A stretch of 20,508 bases of DNA from a virus. The notes beneath the pieces were generated by a model. That model saw nothing but the letters and a program-made list of their open reading frames with translations. It did no database searches and was not told where the DNA came from. Both the position numbers and the translations under genes were made by a program. The DNA lies in the IMG/VR virus record IMGVR_UViG_3300025880_000146, positions 1 through 20,508 of that record. One strand, given 5' to 3'. Each line of letters begins with the position of its first letter. Position 1 is the stretch's first letter. Of this stretch, positions 1,087 through 19,725 are shown one piece after another.

Positions 1087-1094
1087 TATTTATA
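1087..1094 (-). promoter_or_regulatory. T4-type late promoter box TATAAATA
   Basis: The minus strand reads TATAAATA, an exact match to the late promoter known from T4. It sits 24 nt before the ATG of the repeat-containing gene and overlaps the stop codon of the preceding 169-aa gene. The predicted transcript would start about 6 nt downstream of the box and carry a GGGGAA ribosome site. Confidence 0.7.
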
Positions 1095-3256: not shown

Positions 3257-3997
3257 TTATTTGACTAGAGATCTTCCAAATGCTCTGCCTGCTGCAAAGC
3301 CGCCTGCGAATGCAGTTGCACCAGCCGCTGCTTTAAATGCTGCTTGCTTGATTTTACCTGGACCTTTTTCTGCGTTACGAACGTTTCGAATTTCCAATCC
3401 GTTTGCTCTAGTCATTTTTTGGAAACTTGGGAACAATTCACTTTTAATTGCATTAGTGCGGAAATATTGCAAAAGCCGTGTACTTGCAAGTCCACGCTGC
3501 GCAGTGTCTGAGTTTGGCCAATTTGAAACAATACGTCTGATACTTCTGTAGTTACTGTTTTGTATATCTAGACCACGTTCTAATTGCATAAAAAATGTTT
3601 GTGGACTAATAATATTTCTTCCGTTAGCCATTTGTTGAAGATATTGTCTAATTTTCATTTCCGGCACATTGACTTTATTACCTTGTATTGCGCCTTTTGT
3701 ATCTGAAGTTCCGATACCGTTTGTGATAGCATGCAAAGAATGATACAAGTCCGTTCCATTTGTTTTATATGCTTTGAAATGGCCTCCACCGGCGGTTAAA
3801 GTACGTTTAGCGTATTGCTGTGCAATAGGTGCTGTTGTGTAATCATTATACATTGCATGCAGTGTAAGTAAATTTAAAAATGCAAAATCTAAATTTTTAC
3901 GAATATCAGTTGCTTCAAGTTGTTGGCGTGTTCTGAACATTTTGCTTTCATTCAAACTACCTACAAATCCAAACTGCGAGGGCTTTGCTTCACTCAT
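3257..3997 (-). CDS. Unassigned phage protein with Gly/Ala-rich C-terminal segment, 246 aa
   Basis: The preferred start, MSEAKPSQFGFVG, has a near-perfect ribosome site (AAGGAGGG, about 6 nt spacing). An upstream in-frame ATG at 4048 would add 17 residues (MEKYTAKQWAEIEGGHT) and sits 5 nt after a TAAATA late box, so a longer leaderless form is possible. The body is helical and basic. The C-terminus has a hydrophobic Gly/Ala segment with small-residue spacing (AAAGATAFAGGFAAGRAFGR) that could insert into a membrane or pack tightly in a particle. It follows the ligase-like gene. No family is recognised; a virion or ejected protein would fit the late box and tail, but that is inference. Confidence 0.7.
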   Translation of the reverse strand: MSEAKPSQFGFVGSLNESKMFRTRQQLEATDIRKNLDFAFLNLLTLHAMYNDYTTAPIAQQYAKRTLTAGGGHFKAYKTNGTDLYHSLHAITNGIGTSDTKGAIQGNKVNVPEMKIRQYLQQMANGRNIISPQTFFMQLERGLDIQNSNYRSIRRIVSNWPNSDTAQRGLASTRLLQYFRTNAIKSELFPSFQKMTRANGLEIRNVRNAEKGPGKIKQAAFKAAAGATAFAGGFAAGRAFGRSLVK

Positions 3998-4052
3998 AGT
4001 GTGCCCTCCTTCGATTTCTGCCCATTGCTTTGCTGTATACTTTTCCATACTA

Positions 4053-4060
4053 GTATTTAC
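4053..4060 (-). promoter_or_regulatory. Late promoter-like box GTAAATAC
   Basis: The minus strand reads GGTAAATAC, then TAGT and an ATG at 4048. The TAAATA core matches the other late boxes in the window. Transcription would begin near 4048, giving the start at 3997 a leader of about 50 nt with a strong ribosome site. Confidence 0.45.
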
Positions 4061-4061
4061 C

Positions 4062-5138
4062 TTACAAATTTGGTGTCCAGCGATGACGTGGCACTAGTTT
4101 GACTTTATCTCGCCCTGCAACATATCCTTCGCCGCCATCTTGTCCTTTAGTAGAGGCAGTTACATCTGCAGGTGCAGCATCTAATTGATCAATGATATGA
4201 TTTTTTACAGTCATAATTTTTACAACTAAATTTAATATAGCATTAAGTCCCTTGGAGTCGCCTGCCATTAATTTTGCTTGTTGCCCTTGACTGACTTTCG
4301 ATGTTTTAAGCCAGTCGAAAAATCCTGTTGCAAGTTGATCTAGTTTGCCTTGCTTTGTCATTTGATTAACATAGTTATAAACAACAGCGCCTTTATTACT
4401 CAGTCCTGTTTCAGGAGTAAGCCACGCATCGATTAACTGTCCAGTTGCTTTTGCTGTATCGAGTATTTCATTTACTTCTGTTGTGTCTATCTTAGGTGTA
4501 TGAGAAACATATGTTTGTCCAAACACAACTACTTCCTGAGTATTTAAACGCTTAGTATCTTTAATAGGAGTGCCTTGTTTATCTCCGAATTCGCCAAACA
4601 AACTATGTGCAGCAATACCGATAGAACTTTGCCCGATGCGCTTTCCGATTTCGCTACTGCCATCTACTGTATATGCAACATTGTTTGGTTCGAACACAAA
4701 GTTACCATTATCTTTTACAAACGGTTTACTAGGAGAGTACAGCAAGTCTCCGTATATAAATCCACGAATGTCGCTTGGGGTATTGCGCTCCATTAAGTCA
4801 AACACAGCGCCCATGTTATCAGCAAAATCCTGTCTCCAGTCTTCACCTTTGCCTGTACTCATAATGAATGACTTTAGCTCATCACTGCTAGTACTTTTGC
4901 TTTTGCCCCAGCCATTTTTACCAGTTAGTATAAATGTGCCACTTGCATCTCTGCCCCAATAAATGGTGGGATTGCCATCCCATTTAATGGCAACATCTGA
5001 AGTGTCTTGACTTAAACGCTGTAGTATTTGCGCAGCTTTAATTGCACCTTTACTACCTTCTGCAAAAACTAAATCTTCTAAATGCTGGTACTCACGACCA
5101 ACTTTAGCTGCTTCAGTTAATATCTCTCGAGCTCTCAT
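4062..5138 (-). CDS. ATP-grasp-unrelated, ligase-like nucleotidyltransferase (DUF6267-type), 358 aa
   Basis: Residues 51-57 read IKWDGNP, a match to motif I (KxDG) of covalent nucleotidyltransferases such as DNA/RNA ligases and capping enzymes, with K52 the predicted AMP-accepting lysine. FIYGDLLY at 127-134 fits motif III, GAVVYNYV at 250-257 is a candidate for motif IV, and the C-terminal KVKLVPRHRW is a candidate for motif V. Similar proteins in marine T4-like phages are, from memory, classed as DUF6267. The start MRAREILTEAAK overlaps the stop of the nucleotidyltransferase gene as TAATG, so the two are translationally coupled. Together they could make an end-modifying and sealing pair for nucleic acid. 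Adenylation activity is inferred from motifs only; a non-ligase nucleotidyltransferase remains possible. Confidence 0.75.
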   Translation of the reverse strand: MRAREILTEAAKVGREYQHLEDLVFAEGSKGAIKAAQILQRLSQDTSDVAIKWDGNPTIYWGRDASGTFILTGKNGWGKSKSTSSDELKSFIMSTGKGEDWRQDFADNMGAVFDLMERNTPSDIRGFIYGDLLYSPSKPFVKDNGNFVFEPNNVAYTVDGSSEIGKRIGQSSIGIAAHSLFGEFGDKQGTPIKDTKRLNTQEVVVFGQTYVSHTPKIDTTEVNEILDTAKATGQLIDAWLTPETGLSNKGAVVYNYVNQMTKQGKLDQLATGFFDWLKTSKVSQGQQAKLMAGDSKGLNAILNLVVKIMTVKNHIIDQLDAAPADVTASTKGQDGGEGYVAGRDKVKLVPRHRWTPNL

Positions 5139-5959
5139 TATTCAAGTTCTTTCCAATTGGGATCATTTGCTCTGATGTTTGCTAATAGCTGTTCGCCTTC
5201 TGTACCCAATGCTGCTACAATAGCTTCCACACTGCCCATGTCTTCTTTGCGGGCATTGGGGCCTAATAATAATTTAGCAATCTCGTTGATGTCGCTGGTG
5301 ATCAATCCGTTTGGATCTTTTTTACCGTTTGGTAAACGCTTGAATAATCCAACATAGTTACTCCACAGCATACCTTTTTCTCTGGCAATAATACTCAGCA
5401 ACTGATGCTTGTTAGTGCCTTTGAATTTTGATCCTGCTGGAATACTATGTGTATGAAACTGCGCCGCATTGGCTGCGTTTGGTACAACCATAACGTCTAC
5501 TTGATGTGTAGCATCACCGCTTTTTACTTCTACATGTACACTAGTACCACTTTGTCCTGTATTAAATCCTGCCAGGTCAAACACTTGACGCAGTTTTTTA
5601 CGGATGTCAGCATCTTTAGCATCTTCCATATTGAAGTGTTGCTTGAGTTGATCCACATCCACAATCATGTCCAAGTCTCCACTTACTTTACCTTTGGTGG
5701 GTGTTGCACCCGATCCAATAGGTATAGCAGTGCTGTTGGTTTTTGTCAACACACCGTTGATTGTTTTCATAATGTCAGGTATTTTTTCGTGCGGAAAGTC
5801 TGTTGTATTAGGAAAGACATTGCCGCCTTCCTTTACATACTTTTTGAGTAGTTTTTTCTTTGTCTTTTTGTTGAAAAGACTGCTACCTTTTAATCTGTTG
5901 ACTCTAAGACCACGTTTTTTACGCTGCTTAGTCCCGCTTAATATGTCTGCTATTTTCAT
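5138..5959 (-). CDS. Pol-beta superfamily nucleotidyltransferase, 273 aa
   Basis: The motif IGSGATPTKGKVSGDLDMIV (residues 81-100) contains the GS of the fold and the metal-binding pair D95-L-D97. HQVDVMVV supplies the third acidic residue at D155. This is the active-site pattern of minimal nucleotidyltransferases, which transfer NMP to RNA, DNA or protein. The N-terminus is strongly basic (KQRKKRGLRV and KKTKKKLLKK), which suits nucleic-acid binding. I chose ATG 5959 (MKIADILSG); a TTG four codons upstream also stays open and has GAGG close by. The gene overlaps the end of the 88-aa gene and its stop overlaps the start of the ligase-like gene. Substrate unknown; tRNA end repair or DNA-end processing are guesses. 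Confidence 0.8.
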   Translation of the reverse strand: MKIADILSGTKQRKKRGLRVNRLKGSSLFNKKTKKKLLKKYVKEGGNVFPNTTDFPHEKIPDIMKTINGVLTKTNSTAIPIGSGATPTKGKVSGDLDMIVDVDQLKQHFNMEDAKDADIRKKLRQVFDLAGFNTGQSGTSVHVEVKSGDATHQVDVMVVPNAANAAQFHTHSIPAGSKFKGTNKHQLLSIIAREKGMLWSNYVGLFKRLPNGKKDPNGLITSDINEIAKLLLGPNARKEDMGSVEAIVAALGTEGEQLLANIRANDPNWKELE

Positions 5960-6194
5960 CGACTTTACCAATACCTCTTTGAAACTTACGTGGATCTTTG
6001 GTACGTATGCTATTAATCAAACGCTTGTTTAGGTCAGCGGCAGTTTCACTATCAAAACTTTCATTAATTAACTTAATTAAGTTTATCGCTGTAACTATCA
6101 CTTGTTGTGCATTTGACTCGACAATATGCTTCTTGTCCCGTTTTGGTGACATAGCATTAATTTCTTCCAATAATGATCTCGTTTTACGCTTCAT
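5928..6194 (-). CDS. Conserved small phage protein, 88 aa
   Basis: It starts MKRKTRSLLEEINAMSPKRD and contains ESNAQQVIVTAINLIKLI, then INSIRTKDPRKFQRGI. I recall this pattern as a hypothetical protein widespread in T4-like marine phages. ATG 6194 is preferred over an ATG 12 codons upstream, because the late-type box CTAAATAC (6202-6209) would lie inside the longer coding region and end just before 6194. The protein is basic and mostly helical with no membrane segment. Its last codons overlap the start of the nucleotidyltransferase gene, so the three genes from 6194 to 4062 form one unit. Function unknown. Confidence 0.75.
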   Translation of the reverse strand: MKRKTRSLLEEINAMSPKRDKKHIVESNAQQVIVTAINLIKLINESFDSETAADLNKRLINSIRTKDPRKFQRGIGKVDENSRHIKRD

Positions 6195-6201
6195 CTTAAT
6201 A

Positions 6202-6209
6202 GTATTTAG
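6202..6209 (-). promoter_or_regulatory. Late promoter-like box CTAAATAC
   Basis: The minus strand reads ACTAAATAC, identical to the box upstream of the virion-like gene at 10283. It ends 7 nt before the ATG at 6194, with no obvious ribosome site between. It would drive the 88-aa, nucleotidyltransferase and ligase-like genes. Confidence 0.5.
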
Positions 6210-6421: not shown

Positions 6422-6844
6422 TCAGCACACTATATATTCAAAGTTTTGGCAATCTTTGTGTTTTGCCAAAAACGTTGCACCATTCTTTAAGTGGAACTTT
6501 TCTGCCATCTCTGTTAAAGGACTTAATGTAACAAATCTATTAACCCATTTTCGCTGCATACTGATGAGCTCAGCTACTCCGTTTACTAATTCTCTCCCTG
6601 CTTTTGGTTTATAACTCCAAACAGTGTAAAACACTGCTACTTCATTGCCAACAAACTCCAGATCACTTTCATTTGTTGGCACTTCTGTTGTGTACGCTAC
6701 ACATATACATGCAGCAATTTCGTTATCACGTTCCAATACATACACTTCTCTGCCCGAACGTGTCCGCCATTCTTTGCTAATATGCGGTCTTACTGGATCG
6801 TTTTCTATATGTACTAATTCTTCGATAGTTGCTAATCTAATCAC
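6422..6844 (-). CDS. GNAT-like acetyltransferase-fold protein, 140 aa
   Basis: The layout fits the GNAT fold: an N-terminal helix-strand (MIRLATIEELVHI), central strands REVYVLERDNEIAACICVAY, a strand-helix AVFYTVWSYKPKAGRELVNG that could hold the acetyl-CoA loop (KPKAGREL in place of the usual Q/RxxGxG/A), and a C-terminal MAEKFHLKNGATFLAKHK resembling the end of GNAT proteins. T7 gp13-type virion proteins share a similar ending, so an inactive structural version is possible. The start is GTG at 6844, overlapping the helicase stop by one base (TAGTG), so translation is coupled to the helicase. Substrate unknown. Confidence 0.65.
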   Translation of the reverse strand: MIRLATIEELVHIENDPVRPHISKEWRTRSGREVYVLERDNEIAACICVAYTTEVPTNESDLEFVGNEVAVFYTVWSYKPKAGRELVNGVAELISMQRKWVNRFVTLSPLTEMAEKFHLKNGATFLAKHKDCQNFEYIVC

Positions 6845-8238
6845 TACTGACTCTTTCTCAATAAACTCTTAAGTCTATCTGTTGCATCTACTTGCGGATT
6901 TGCATCCATGTTATTCTCTGCGACAGTTTCGCCTGCAGGTGCTACACTACTCTTTGTTTTTAGCTTTTGATAAATGCTTGCAACTGCACCTTCATCTTCT
7001 TGTTCATCTGGGTCCAAGTCTTCAATCTTCAAACTGTCCATGTTAAATGCCAAGTCCAGTTTACTACCAACCCCACTACTACTGCGTGTTTTCATAAATT
7101 GTATTTGTACTCTGCCACGCTCTCGCATAGCTCTACTGCTGAAAATACCAATCAAGTTGTCTGCTGTGTTAATCTTACTAATACCGCCTGCAATATGGCT
7201 GTGGTCAAATTCAATCTCATCAACTGCACTACGATTCAACTGCGAAGCTGTTACAAACAATATACCAAGTTCAGTTGCCAAGTTGCGCAACTCTTCACTA
7301 ACAAATTTATCTTTAATAAATTGATCGCTTGGGTTAACTTTAACTGTGACTGGCATCATAAGATCCAAATAGTCAACCAGTAGTGCATCAACATGCAAGT
7401 TGTGTTGTATCTGATATTCTCTCATGTATGCTTTGATGTCGTTAACAGTAGTACCATTCTTCATTTGTATTACTTGTAGTTTGCCTGCTTTCTTACTGGC
7501 CATCTTAACACGCAATTCTACATCACTGCTATTTTTCATAACGTCTTTGGTGCTCATACCTGTAAGCATAGCATCCAATCTCATAGCACACAGTTCTTCA
7601 CTAAGTTCCAAACTAATGTACACCACGTTCTTGCCTTGCAATGCCCAGTTCAGTGCCAAGTTTTGCATAAACAAACTCTTACCACTACCACTGCCACCTG
7701 CAAAGATGTTTAGCTCGCCTGGATTAAATCCACCATACAATACTCTATCAAATGTCTCCCAGCCACTACTGTTCTGTCCTCTGTTGTCTTTGATGCTTTG
7801 TATGCGTCCTGCAGGATCATCCCAATAGTTTGTACCAAAGTTCTTAGCAAGTCCAATCTCTGTTGCCGCTTTGATGATTCCTTCTACTGTACCATACTCT
7901 TTGTTCTCTAACATATCAGCACTTTTTAGAATTGCTGCTTCCAACGCTTTGTGTCTACAGAACTGTTCAAAGTTATCCATAAACCAATTTTTATGTTCTG
8001 TGGTTAGTTTGTCTCGCACATCGGATATTTCAACACCAGCCACACCTTTAACTTGCTCTAGCATAGGAACATCGTTGTATTCATCTGCGTGTTTTTGTAT
8101 AAAGTCTACTGTGTCTCTGAATTGTCTATCAAAGTAACTGCTTTCTAAGATAGCATTACACCGCACAAACAGATCCTTGTCAGCCAATAAGAACTCCAAG
8201 TATAACTGTTGTAGGTCTGCGCTGTAATCTTCACTCAT
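6844..8238 (-). CDS. 41: Replicative DnaB-family helicase (T4 gp41-like), 464 aa
   Basis: This RecA-fold hexameric helicase unwinds DNA ahead of the phage replisome and works with primase. Walker A is GGSGSGKS at 181-188, Walker B is ALLVDYLDL at 285-293, and the DnaB motif FVTASQLNR lies at 328-336. RGRVQIQFMKTRSSSG is the conserved end with candidate arginine-finger residues. The N-terminal 130 residues are helical, as in gp41. Length is close to T4 gp41 (about 475). The 40-50 C-terminal residues are acidic and then basic (DLDPDEQEDEGAV, ending LKSLLRKSQ), a likely tail for partner contacts. It starts 8 nt inside the end of the 77-aa gene and is two genes downstream of primase. Confidence 0.95.
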   Translation of the reverse strand: MSEDYSADLQQLYLEFLLADKDLFVRCNAILESSYFDRQFRDTVDFIQKHADEYNDVPMLEQVKGVAGVEISDVRDKLTTEHKNWFMDNFEQFCRHKALEAAILKSADMLENKEYGTVEGIIKAATEIGLAKNFGTNYWDDPAGRIQSIKDNRGQNSSGWETFDRVLYGGFNPGELNIFAGGSGSGKSLFMQNLALNWALQGKNVVYISLELSEELCAMRLDAMLTGMSTKDVMKNSSDVELRVKMASKKAGKLQVIQMKNGTTVNDIKAYMREYQIQHNLHVDALLVDYLDLMMPVTVKVNPSDQFIKDKFVSEELRNLATELGILFVTASQLNRSAVDEIEFDHSHIAGGISKINTADNLIGIFSSRAMRERGRVQIQFMKTRSSSGVGSKLDLAFNMDSLKIEDLDPDEQEDEGAVASIYQKLKTKSSVAPAGETVAENNMDANPQVDATDRLKSLLRKSQ

Positions 8239-10299: not shown

Positions 10300-10307
10300 G
10301 TATTTAG
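10300..10307 (-). promoter_or_regulatory. Late promoter-like box CTAAATAC
   Basis: The minus strand reads ACTAAATAC, 16 nt before the ATG of the virion-like gene, followed by GGAG as ribosome site. It lies in the 40-nt divergent gap with the plus-strand gene at 10324, within or beside the inverted repeat TTAGT-TG-ACTAA (10304-10315). Confidence 0.5.
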
Positions 10308-10323
10308 TTGACTAAGTAGTACG

Positions 10324-10710
10324 ATGACAAATAATATTCCAAAAAAATATCAAAACTTATTAGACGAGTTTCCATTTTTAACCCTTGTTTCGTACGGTGG
10401 GGCCGAATATGTAGGCATTGTACAAAATATTGATAATAATTTAGCAAGTATGTATAATTTTGACAGCATTAAAACCTTGAAAGACAAGCAATCATTCCTG
10501 GAGCTCGGCGAAGAATGGTGGTGGGGTACAAATAGAATGATCCCAATTAATATTATACTTAAAAATCAATTCGAACCTTTCAGAACGTGTCTAATAACGT
10601 TTAGTCTTAAAGACTTCGAAGTACTACATGGTCCTACTATTAGCCTCAGTAACATTGTTCAAAAAAGAGTTAAACGTAGAAATATTCAATTAGTTAGAAA
10701 AATTAACTAG
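10324..10710 (+). CDS. Conserved hypothetical phage protein, 128 aa, only clear plus-strand gene
   Basis: It starts MTNNIPKKYQNLLDEFPFLT and contains YGGAEYVGIVQNIDNNLASM, then LELGEEWWWGTNRMIPINII, a distinctive acidic-aromatic motif that I recall from hypothetical proteins of marine T4-like phages. The C-terminus is basic (QKRVKRRNIQLVRK). The protein looks alpha/beta and soluble. It is divergent from the virion-like gene and overlaps the dioxygenase gene tail to tail by 8 nt. No good ribosome site or promoter was found in the 40-nt upstream gap. Function unknown. Confidence 0.82.
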   Translation: MTNNIPKKYQNLLDEFPFLTLVSYGGAEYVGIVQNIDNNLASMYNFDSIKTLKDKQSFLELGEEWWWGTNRMIPINIILKNQFEPFRTCLITFSLKDFEVLHGPTISLSNIVQKRVKRRNIQLVRKIN

Positions 10711-18009: not shown

Positions 18010-18097
18010 TGGCAGAGAGACAGGGATTCGAACCCTGGGAACCTTTCGGTTCGGCGGATTAGTAATCCGCTGCCTTCGACCACTCGGCCACCTCTCC
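18010..18097 (-). tRNA. tRNA-Ser, anticodon ACU (CCA encoded)
   Basis: The 88-nt sequence starts GGAGAGGTGGCCGAGTGG. It has an anticodon arm GCGGA-TTACTAA-TCCGC, a long variable arm GAACC-GAAA-GGTTC, a T arm CAGGG-TTCGAAT-CCCTG, and discriminator G with encoded CCA. The long variable arm and G73 mark a serine tRNA. The anticodon at positions 34-36 is ACU, which pairs with AGU. The usual bacterial form is GCU, so A34 is unusual. The acceptor has G1 opposite U72. A promoter sits directly upstream. Confidence 0.9.
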
Positions 18098-18365: not shown

Positions 18366-18449
18366 TGGTGCGGCTGGAGAGACTTGAACTCTCACGCTGT
18401 AAAGCACAGGTACCTAAAACCTGCGTGTCTACCATTCCACCACAGCCGC
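18366..18449 (-). tRNA. tRNA-Leu, anticodon UAG (CCA encoded)
   Basis: The 84-nt sequence starts GCGGCTGTGGTGGAATGG and ends AGCCGCACCA. The acceptor stem GCGGCTG/CAGCCGC is perfect. The anticodon arm is CAGGT-TTTAGGT-ACCTG with anticodon UAG, reading CUA. The long variable arm (about GTGCTTTACAGC) and A73 fit leucine. CCA is encoded. Confidence 0.92.
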
Positions 18450-19480: not shown

Positions 19481-19564
19481 TGGTACTCGCACCCGGACTC
19501 GAACCGGGACGCCTTACGGCCACAGATTTTAAGTCTGTTATGTCTACCATTCCATCATGCGAGC
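19481..19564 (-). tRNA. tRNA-Leu, anticodon UAA (CCA encoded)
   Basis: The 84-nt sequence starts GCTCGCATGATGGAATGG and ends GGGTGCGAGTACCA. The anticodon arm is ACAGA-CTTAAAA-TCTGT with anticodon UAA, reading UUA. The variable arm (GGCCGTAAGGCGTC region), A73 and encoded CCA fit leucine. The acceptor has G1 opposite U72, as in tRNA-Ser. Confidence 0.92.
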
Positions 19565-19566
19565 AT

Positions 19567-19642
19567 TGGTGCTCCCGGTAGGATTCGAACCTACGGTCAA
19601 CCCGTTATGAGCGGGCGGCTTTAACCACTAAGCTACAGGAGC
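19567..19642 (-). tRNA. tRNA with anticodon CAU, probably Ile2 (lysidine type), CCA encoded
   Basis: The 76-nt sequence starts GCTCCTGTAGCTTAGTGG. The anticodon loop is CTCATAA with CAU. The acceptor contains C4-G69 and C5-G68, as in E. coli tRNA-Ile2, the substrate of TilS, and unlike elongator tRNA-Met. All other tRNAs here read A/U-ending codons, and AUA would fit. Methionine elongator remains possible. Confidence 0.85.
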
Positions 19643-19648
19643 GGTTAT

Positions 19649-19725
19649 TGGCGATCTCTGCAGGATTCGAACCTGCGACCTAGTGCTTAGAAGGCACTTG
19701 CTCTATCCAGCTGAGCTAAGAGACC
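19649..19725 (-). tRNA. tRNA-Arg, anticodon UCU (CCA encoded)
   Basis: The 77-nt sequence starts GGTCTCTTAGCTCAGCTG. The anticodon arm is AGTGC-CTTCTAA-GCACT with anticodon UCU, reading AGA. The T arm GCAGG-TTCGAAT-CCTGC and discriminator G with CCA are present. It is the first of the tRNA cluster after the 135-aa gene, 12 nt downstream. Confidence 0.93.

What the first reader, a model, noticed from the sequence alone, without database searches (positions are those of the whole stretch)
4062..5959. Coupled pol-beta nucleotidyltransferase and ligase-like nucleotidyltransferase in a late region
Seen: GS...SGDLD plus HQVDVM in one protein and IKWDGNP plus FIYGDLLY in the next, with TAATG overlap. 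A nucleotide adder next to a covalent nucleotidyltransferase is the logic of an end-repair or tagging pair (compare tRNA or DNA end repair systems), but here it comes under a late-type TAAATA box in a region of unassigned late genes. The pair appears conserved in marine T4-like phages, yet I know of no demonstrated substrate.
Basis: partly seen in the sequence, partly recalled or inferred. Interest (0 to 1): 0.72.

Follow-up and report, generated by a model that had tools for sequence, protein, structure and literature searches.

The report
Late phage nucleotide-adder and ligase-like pair
A marine phage carries two overlapping late genes, one with the shape of a nucleotide-adding polymerase and one that looks like a nucleic-acid ligase, which probably mend broken RNA or DNA ends together; the same logic is known from other phages, but both protein families here lack an assigned function.

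Summary
In detail: both genes, the motifs, the TAATG overlap and the late-type box exist, but the box lies upstream of a third, small gene that heads the operon. The 273-aa protein matches no Pfam, PHROG or NCBIfam family. Its predicted fold matches DNA polymerases lambda/beta (E 8e-9), and its three catalytic aspartates are invariant in 49 of 49 relatives. The 358-aa protein is Pfam DUF6267. Its ligase-type motifs (Lys52-x-Asp-Gly, Gly-Asp, Glu-Gly-x-Val, Lys-Leu-Val) are essentially invariant in 111 relatives. Ligases top its fold ranking, but no single PDB match is significant. The polymerase-fold gene almost always abuts DUF6267. In two rhizobial jumbo phages a relative instead overlaps a clearer RNA-ligase-type gene, also downstream of the replicative helicase. 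I read the pair as a ligase-associated nucleotidyltransferase system, analogous to RlaP plus RNA ligase but not RlaP by sequence. The substrate is unproven. DUF6267 is not simply the missing DNA ligase, because several of these phages encode one separately. A capsid-targeting-like N-terminal tag and the late promoter leave open a virion-carried role, but DUF6267 was not listed in the one related virion proteome compared.

The parts
5138..5959 (-). P0002, 273-aa Pol-beta/X-fold nucleotidyltransferase. Catalytic D95 and D97 at 5677-5669, D155 at 5497-5495, G82 at 5716-5714.
   Evidence: Structure (pLDDT 86.5) and Foldseek PDB. Conservation.
4062..5138 (-). P0001, 358-aa DUF6267 protein, ligase-like covalent nucleotidyltransferase. 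Motif I K52-W-D-G-N-P at 4985-4968, G130-D131 at 4751-4746, motif IV E337-G-Y-V at 4130-4119, motif V K347-L-V-P-R at 4100-4086.
   Evidence: Pfam PF19782 E 4.4e-27. Motif invariance. Structure (pLDDT 90.5). Foldseek.
5928..6194 (-). Small gene (88 aa from ATG at 6194, MKRKTRSLLEE...) heading the operon; overlaps the start of P0002. Matches PHROG 11854, 'virion structural protein'.
   Evidence: E 1.7e-17. Start chosen from the conserved family N-terminus and box position.
6203..6208 (-). Late-type TAAATA box, 8 nt upstream of the small gene's ATG; presumed promoter of the three-gene operon.
   Evidence: present at this place in 94% of 155 related loci.
6844..8238 (-). Replicative DnaB/gp41-type helicase gene upstream; the same kind of neighbour precedes DUF6267 in cyanophages and the NTase-ligase pair in jumbo phages.
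   Evidence: Identified from its sequence and synteny; inference, no family search was run on it.
3257..4048 (-). Downstream gene of unknown function with its own TAAATA box (4054-4059).

Best explanation
A late operon makes a two-enzyme nucleic-acid end-mending system. P0002, a Pol beta/X-fold nucleotidyltransferase, adds one or a few nucleotides to a damaged 3' end using the D95/D97/D155 metal site. P0001 (DUF6267) adenylates its own Lys52, passes AMP to a 5' phosphate and seals the strand. Shown here: gene coupling, invariant catalytic motifs, the predicted Pol X-like fold, the conserved late-type box. Inferred: ligase chemistry of DUF6267, sequential action, substrate. RNA (for example cleaved tRNA) is slightly favoured over gapped or nicked DNA, because a relative of the same NTase overlaps an RNA-ligase-type gene in two distant jumbo phages and the DUF6267 model ranks RNA and tRNA ligases first. 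Late timing argues the other way.
For: P0002 fold: the Foldseek hits shown are all Pol lambda/beta, ~205 aligned columns, TM 0.43-0.50; two relatives weakly match DNA_pol_B_palm. P0001: K52, D54, G55, P57, G130, D131 and H178 are invariant in 111/111, and E337, G338, K347 in every sequence that covers them. Foldseek PDB best hits are tRNA ligase, archaeal RNA ligase, RNA editing ligase and T4 Rnl1, with ASFV ligase, LigD and capping enzymes further down; in BFVD the first named protein outside the DUF6267 group with a ligase name is an RNA ligase of Agrobacterium phage Atu_ph07, E 4.3e-3, 324 aa. In Atu_ph07 a P0002 relative (hhalign probability 86%, E 4.6e-6) overlaps a 324-aa gene with KLDGS and EGVV motifs and weak PF09414 (E 0.002). 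Phosso has the same arrangement. Adjacency in ~200 loci. Phage RlaP-RNA ligase pairs are proposed to restore lost nucleotides before ligation (PMC7824862). Five tRNA genes lie in the window.
Against: No individual PDB match of P0001 is significant (best E 0.057, TM about 0.2), and profile comparison with single phage ligase sequences gave nothing. Motif III is Gly-Asp rather than the usual Gly-Glu. P0001 ends right after motif V, with no OB domain. DUF6267 also occurs without P0002, with unrelated upstream genes and a HIGH-type nucleotidyltransferase downstream or fused, so the pair is not obligatory. PF09414 scores of the jumbo-phage ligase-type genes are below Pfam's cut-off. tRNA repair genes are not typically late (own knowledge).
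Confidence: 0.5

Rival explanations
1. DNA gap-repair module: P0002 is a minimal Pol X that fills short gaps and DUF6267 seals the nick, late in infection so that genomes are intact before packaging.
For: The closest fold of P0002 is DNA Pol X; no CCA-adding or poly(A) enzyme is among the 50 matches shown. Late-type promoter. Position beside helicase and primase genes. African swine fever virus ligase is among the fold hits of P0001.
Against: Three contigs with the pair also encode a standard ATP-dependent DNA ligase. P0002 lacks an arginine at the place of Pol beta R183, a recognisable YF/HF steric gate and an 8-kDa domain. P0001 has no OB domain. Jumbo-phage partners resemble RNA ligases.
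Confidence: 0.25
2. The proteins are packaged in the capsid and ejected with the genome, acting early in the next cell, for instance mending injected DNA or host/phage tRNAs.
For: A T4 capsid-targeting-like N-terminus (M..[hydrophobic].[EDNQ][hydrophobic]..(L/I/V/F)xE) occurs in 45% of the pair-bearing DUF6267 family and in downstream families including one with a transglycosylase and one with a weak PHROG 'virion structural protein' match, ~1% in shuffles and 0% in helicase and primase families. T4 gp21 cleaves after L/I-x-E and CTS peptides route proteins into the head (PMC9026906). The cytidylyltransferase next to DUF6267 was detected in virions of S-SZBM1 (PMC9146016), and NMNAT/cytidylyltransferase-type proteins in virions of S-CREM2 (PMC10665884) and S-SCSM1 (PMC9602691).
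Against: In S-SZBM1 DUF6267 (SSZBM1_141) does not appear in the virion proteome passages read; there it lacks the tag. No T4-type (S77) or S78 prohead protease was found in six contigs with the pair. The tag is weak in P0002 (26% vs 11% shuffled for the looser pattern). The motif was defined after looking at the sequences.
Confidence: 0.15
3. Nucleotide tagging of a protein or metabolite rather than end repair: DUF6267 works with a HIGH-type (NMNAT-like) nucleotidyltransferase in NAD or nucleotide-cofactor chemistry, and P0002 is a substitute partner.
For: DUF6267-type folds occur in proteins named cytidyltransferase-like domain-containing, in S-PM2 and uncultured phages, and DUF6267 is followed by such a gene in cyanophages, Melnitz and DLP_6 and in some relatives of the window clade.
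Against: P0002 and its jumbo-phage relatives pair with ligase-type genes. Five of six pair-bearing records searched show no CTP_transf_like gene, though they may be fragments.
Confidence: 0.1

Closest known systems
[quoted passage not shown]
   Same: A Pol-beta-fold nucleotidyltransferase linked to a ligase, proposed to restore lost nucleotides before sealing (PMC7824862).
   Different: P0002 has no PF10127 match, and Atu_ph07 carries a separate RlaP elsewhere besides the P0002 relative. The partner here is DUF6267, not Rnl1/Rnl2. The operon has a late-type box.
Family X DNA polymerases (Pol lambda, Pol beta; bacterial PolX2, which lacks the 8-kDa and PHP domains, PMC12926913)
   Same: Fold over about 205 residues, catalytic Asp triad, SGD-x-D motif.
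   Different: About 18% identity, no arginine at the R183 position, no clear YF/HF gate, no 8-kDa or PHP domain, no significant Pfam match.
ATP-dependent RNA/tRNA/DNA ligases and capping enzymes (covalent nucleotidyltransferases)
   Same: Order KxDG ... G-D ... EGxV ... K-L-V along the chain, and the strand/helix order of the model.
   Different: Asp for Glu in motif III, a helical insertion of about 100 residues before motif IV, chain ends after motif V, fold match not individually significant.
ASFV Pol X plus DNA ligase repair pair (own knowledge)
   Same: Virus-encoded minimal Pol X together with a virus-encoded ligase.
   Different: The ASFV ligase is a DNA ligase with an OB domain; P0001 ends after motif V. 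A DNA substrate is not shown here.

Membership tests
Pfam DUF6267 (PF19782) | Profile match above curated cut-off over most of the model | tested here: met
   95.9 bits vs cut-off 27, residues 17-352 to positions 5-366 of 376.
Covalent nucleotidyltransferase (ligase/capping) superfamily | Motif I K-x-D-G with invariant lysine | tested here: met
   K52, D54, G55 in 111/111.
Covalent nucleotidyltransferase (ligase/capping) superfamily | Motifs III, IV, V in order | tested here: inconclusive
   G-D (not G-E) at 130-131; EGxV at 337-340; K-L-V at 347-349, all essentially invariant; IIIa uncertain.
Covalent nucleotidyltransferase (ligase/capping) superfamily | Fold | tested here: inconclusive
   Ligases lead the PDB ranking but best E is 0.057 with TM 0.19; best named viral ligase E 0.0043.
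DNA ligase | C-terminal OB domain after motif V | tested here: not met
   Chain ends 7 residues after R351; the model shows only a short helix there.
DNA polymerase family X | Palm fold and catalytic Asp triad | tested here: met
   Foldseek E 8e-9; D95, D97, D155 in 49/49.
DNA polymerase family X | R183-type arginine, GS motif and YF/HF steric gate of canonical members (PMC9226535) | tested here: inconclusive
   No Arg between G82 and S93; G176-S/T177 present; I-P instead of YF. Positions matched by motif, not by superposition.
DNA polymerase family X | 8-kDa (lyase) domain | tested here: not met
   Residues 1-50 are a mostly low-confidence basic tail.
RlaP (PF10127) | Profile match | tested here: not met
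   No match for P0002 or any of 32 relatives at E<=1; none in five pair-bearing contigs.
RlaP (PF10127) | Genetic linkage to a ligase | tested here: met
   (if DUF6267 is accepted as ligase-like).
T4-type capsid-targeted internal protein | N-terminal targeting peptide ending in (L/I)xE | tested here: met
   P0001 MRAREILTE|A; statistics. Weak in P0002.
T4-type capsid-targeted internal protein | gp21-type prohead protease in the same phage | tested here: not met
   No PF03420 or PF04586 match in six pair-bearing contigs, which may be incomplete.
T4-type capsid-targeted internal protein | Presence in purified virions | not testable with these tools
   No proteome of this clade was found; in S-SZBM1 DUF6267, untagged there, does not appear in the proteome passages read.

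The most novel reading that the evidence does not exclude
Two unassigned protein families form a late-made, capsid-delivered repair kit: a minimal Pol X-like nucleotide adder and a new ligase family (DUF6267) that enter with the genome and mend entry-damaged DNA or host-cleaved tRNAs at the start of infection.
Probability: 0.1. Interest if true: 0.85.

Novelty: new variant of a known kind. Interest (0 to 1): 0.55.

Why it matters
DUF6267 occurs in many T4-like cyanophages and related marine phages, yet the paper library held here contains no paper that mentions it. Naming it as a ligase-like enzyme with a specific candidate catalytic lysine, and giving it a partner of Pol X-like fold, turns two blank families into a testable enzyme pair. 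If active, it would add a second, independent phage solution to the ligase-plus-nucleotide-adder logic, and possibly new ligase reagents.

Tried and rejected
1) DUF6267 as the missing replicative gp30 ligase of cyanophages: attractive because the Kyanoviridae tested and Melnitz show no PF01068 gene, but three contigs with the pair, DLP_6 and XG4 have one as well. 2) P0002 as RlaP or another named NTase family: no match. 3) Sequence-profile links of DUF6267 to ligases: hhalign against phage Rnl- and DNA-ligase single sequences gave probability about 0.1-0.2, same as the control; PDB sequence search gave nothing relevant. 4) The gene upstream of DUF6267 in cyanophages as a P0002 relative: not detected. 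It looked like a PD-(D/E)XK nuclease by eye, but the pattern is only modestly above shuffles (67% vs 46%) and no profile supports it. 5) Tag-to-virion association in S-SZBM1: 7 pattern hits vs 1.2 expected; only one of them (the cytidylyltransferase) was recognised in the listed proteome, so no general link. 6) Literature on phage family X polymerases with ligases: one search returned no paper.

Full report
What was checked. The TAAATA box is at 6203-6208 on the minus strand, 8 nt upstream of the likely ATG of a small gene (6194-5928) that overlaps the start of P0002. The operon is therefore small gene, P0002, P0001. Across relatives, TAAATA occurs within 30 nt upstream of the small gene in 94% of 155 loci, of P0002 in 2%, of P0001 in 0%, and of helicase and primase families in 0%. 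TAAATA is otherwise rarer in the window than expected (15 vs 28). The small gene matches PHROG 11854, labelled virion structural protein.

P0002. It matches nothing in Pfam, PHROGs or NCBIfam. A profile search of the PDB by sequence only brushes the catalytic region of the TUTase Tailor (E 1.3). The AlphaFold2 model, built on 32 relatives, has mean pLDDT 86.5. Foldseek finds 183 PDB chains at E<=0.001, and the 50 shown are all DNA polymerase lambda or beta (best E 8e-9, probability 1.0, about 18% identity, TM 0.43-0.50). S93-G94-D95-x-D97 and D155 are invariant in 49 of 49 non-redundant relatives. Features of canonical Pol X described in PMC9226535 are only partly seen: no arginine corresponds to R183, a G-S/T pair is present, and no YF or HF gate is evident. 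These positions were matched by eye. There is no 8-kDa or PHP domain. Two relatives give weak hits to DNA_pol_B_palm (best 0.054). I call it Pol X-like, not a proven Pol X.

P0001. It is Pfam DUF6267 (E 4.4e-27). In an alignment with cyanophage, Melnitz, DLP_6 and XG4 members, and in 111 non-redundant sequences, K52, D54, G55, P57, G62, K74, G130, D131, Y156, H178, N258 and K312 are invariant, and E337, G338 and K347 are invariant in every sequence that reaches them. This is the order of ligase motifs I, III, IV and V, with two departures: Gly-Asp at motif III and K-L-V at motif V. The model has pLDDT 90.5. In the PDB no match reaches E 0.001, but the top of the list is dominated by tRNA and RNA ligases, with DNA ligases and capping enzymes further down. 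In BFVD, below the DUF6267-like group, the first protein with a ligase name is an RNA ligase of Agrobacterium phage Atu_ph07 (E 0.0043), followed by many RNA and DNA ligases. Global superpositions are poor (TM about 0.2), so the fold assignment is probable, not shown. A region of about 100 helical residues precedes motif IV, and the chain ends after motif V, so it lacks the OB domain of DNA ligases.

Linkage. With profiles of both families over 300 loci, 203 hold both, and about 200 of these have the genes overlapping or directly abutting. Three loci have P0002 only: two are cut by contig ends, one (L240) truly lacks DUF6267 next to it. In three loci an extra gene lies between them. DUF6267 without P0002 is common: in Kyanoviridae, Melnitz and DLP_6 it is preceded by other genes and followed by a HIGH-type nucleotidyltransferase, and its fold is found in proteins named for such a domain in S-PM2 and others, which I read as fusions. 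In 84,980 prokaryote species genomes, 25 loci with DUF6267 turned up, mostly in MAG or single-cell contigs, so it looks phage-borne (inference).

Independent pairing. A distant P0002 relative used as query found two jumbo phages, Atu_ph07 and Phosso. hhalign of the P0002 profile against the Atu_ph07 protein gives probability 86% and E 4.6e-6. In both phages the gene overlaps a ligase-type gene with K-L-D-G-S and E-G-V-V motifs (PF09414 E 0.002 and 0.085), downstream of the replicative helicase. The Atu_ph07 gene has the same length (324 aa) as the RNA ligase found by Foldseek; identity of the two records is inferred from length. This argues for RNA-ligase-like partners and for RlaP-like logic (PMC7824862), although P0002 is not RlaP and Atu_ph07 carries a RlaP elsewhere.

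Replicative ligase? PF01068 ligases are present in contigs G001, G003 and G004 that carry the pair, and in DLP_6 and XG4; none was found in the cyanophages and Melnitz tested. DUF6267 is therefore not simply a gp30 substitute.

Virion idea. The DUF6267 family begins M..F...LTE. A capsid-targeting-like pattern is present in 45% of 202 pair-bearing members, in 76% of a family with a weak PHROG 'virion structural' match, in 58% of a family that includes a transglycosylase, about 1% in shuffles, and 0% in helicase and primase families. It resembles T4 CTS peptides cleaved by gp21 after L/I-x-E (PMC9026906). Against it: DUF6267 does not appear in the S-SZBM1 virion proteome passages read, no S77/S78 protease or gp23-type capsid gene was found in the pair-bearing contigs searched, and P0002 shows the tag weakly. 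I keep it as a rival at 0.15.

Verdict. A real, strongly conserved enzyme pair in two unassigned families; a new variant of the ligase-associated Pol-beta NTase logic. Mechanism and substrate are inferred.

Noticed in passing
window 1087-1092, 2103-2108, 2385-2390, 4054-4059, 6203-6208, 10301-10306 (minus): TAAATA boxes sit about 6-25 nt upstream of gene starts, mostly in the structural part of the window, though the hexamer is rarer than expected overall; at 4048 the box is only about 6 nt from the ATG, which would suggest near-leaderless late mRNAs.
   Followed up: partly
L086 11814-12680, L030 12876-13193, L288 2167-2994, L298 4469-5011: A cassette of otherwise unrelated downstream proteins shares a short N-terminus like MKI.[DE][IL][IV].E, including a transglycosylase and peptidoglycan-binding-like proteins; possible capsid-targeted cargo.
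   Followed up: partly
L136 13171-14244, L140 7176-7742, L326 9173-10261; S-PM2 A0A0M6VVW4: NMNAT-like HIGH nucleotidyltransferase next to or apparently fused with DUF6267; proteins of this kind are reported in several cyanophage virions.
   Followed up: partly
L136 11151-11930, L137 10866-11951, L138 11076-11993: Highly varied genes directly upstream of DUF6267 in other phages share a possible PD-(D/E)XK-like D...(S/E)xK pattern; only modestly above shuffles.
   Followed up: partly
contigs G001-G005 (behind L051, L025, L228, L103, L012): No gp23-type capsid (PF07068) or S77/S78 protease match although neighbouring replication genes look T4-like; the head module of this clade may be different or very diverged, or the contigs incomplete.
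   Followed up: partly
window 18010-18097, 18366-18449, 19481-19725 (minus): Five tRNA genes (Ser, Leu, Leu, Met, Arg).
   Followed up: no
window 10324-10710 (plus): A plus-strand ORF with relatives in many of the loci, among genes otherwise on the minus strand; function unknown.
   Followed up: no
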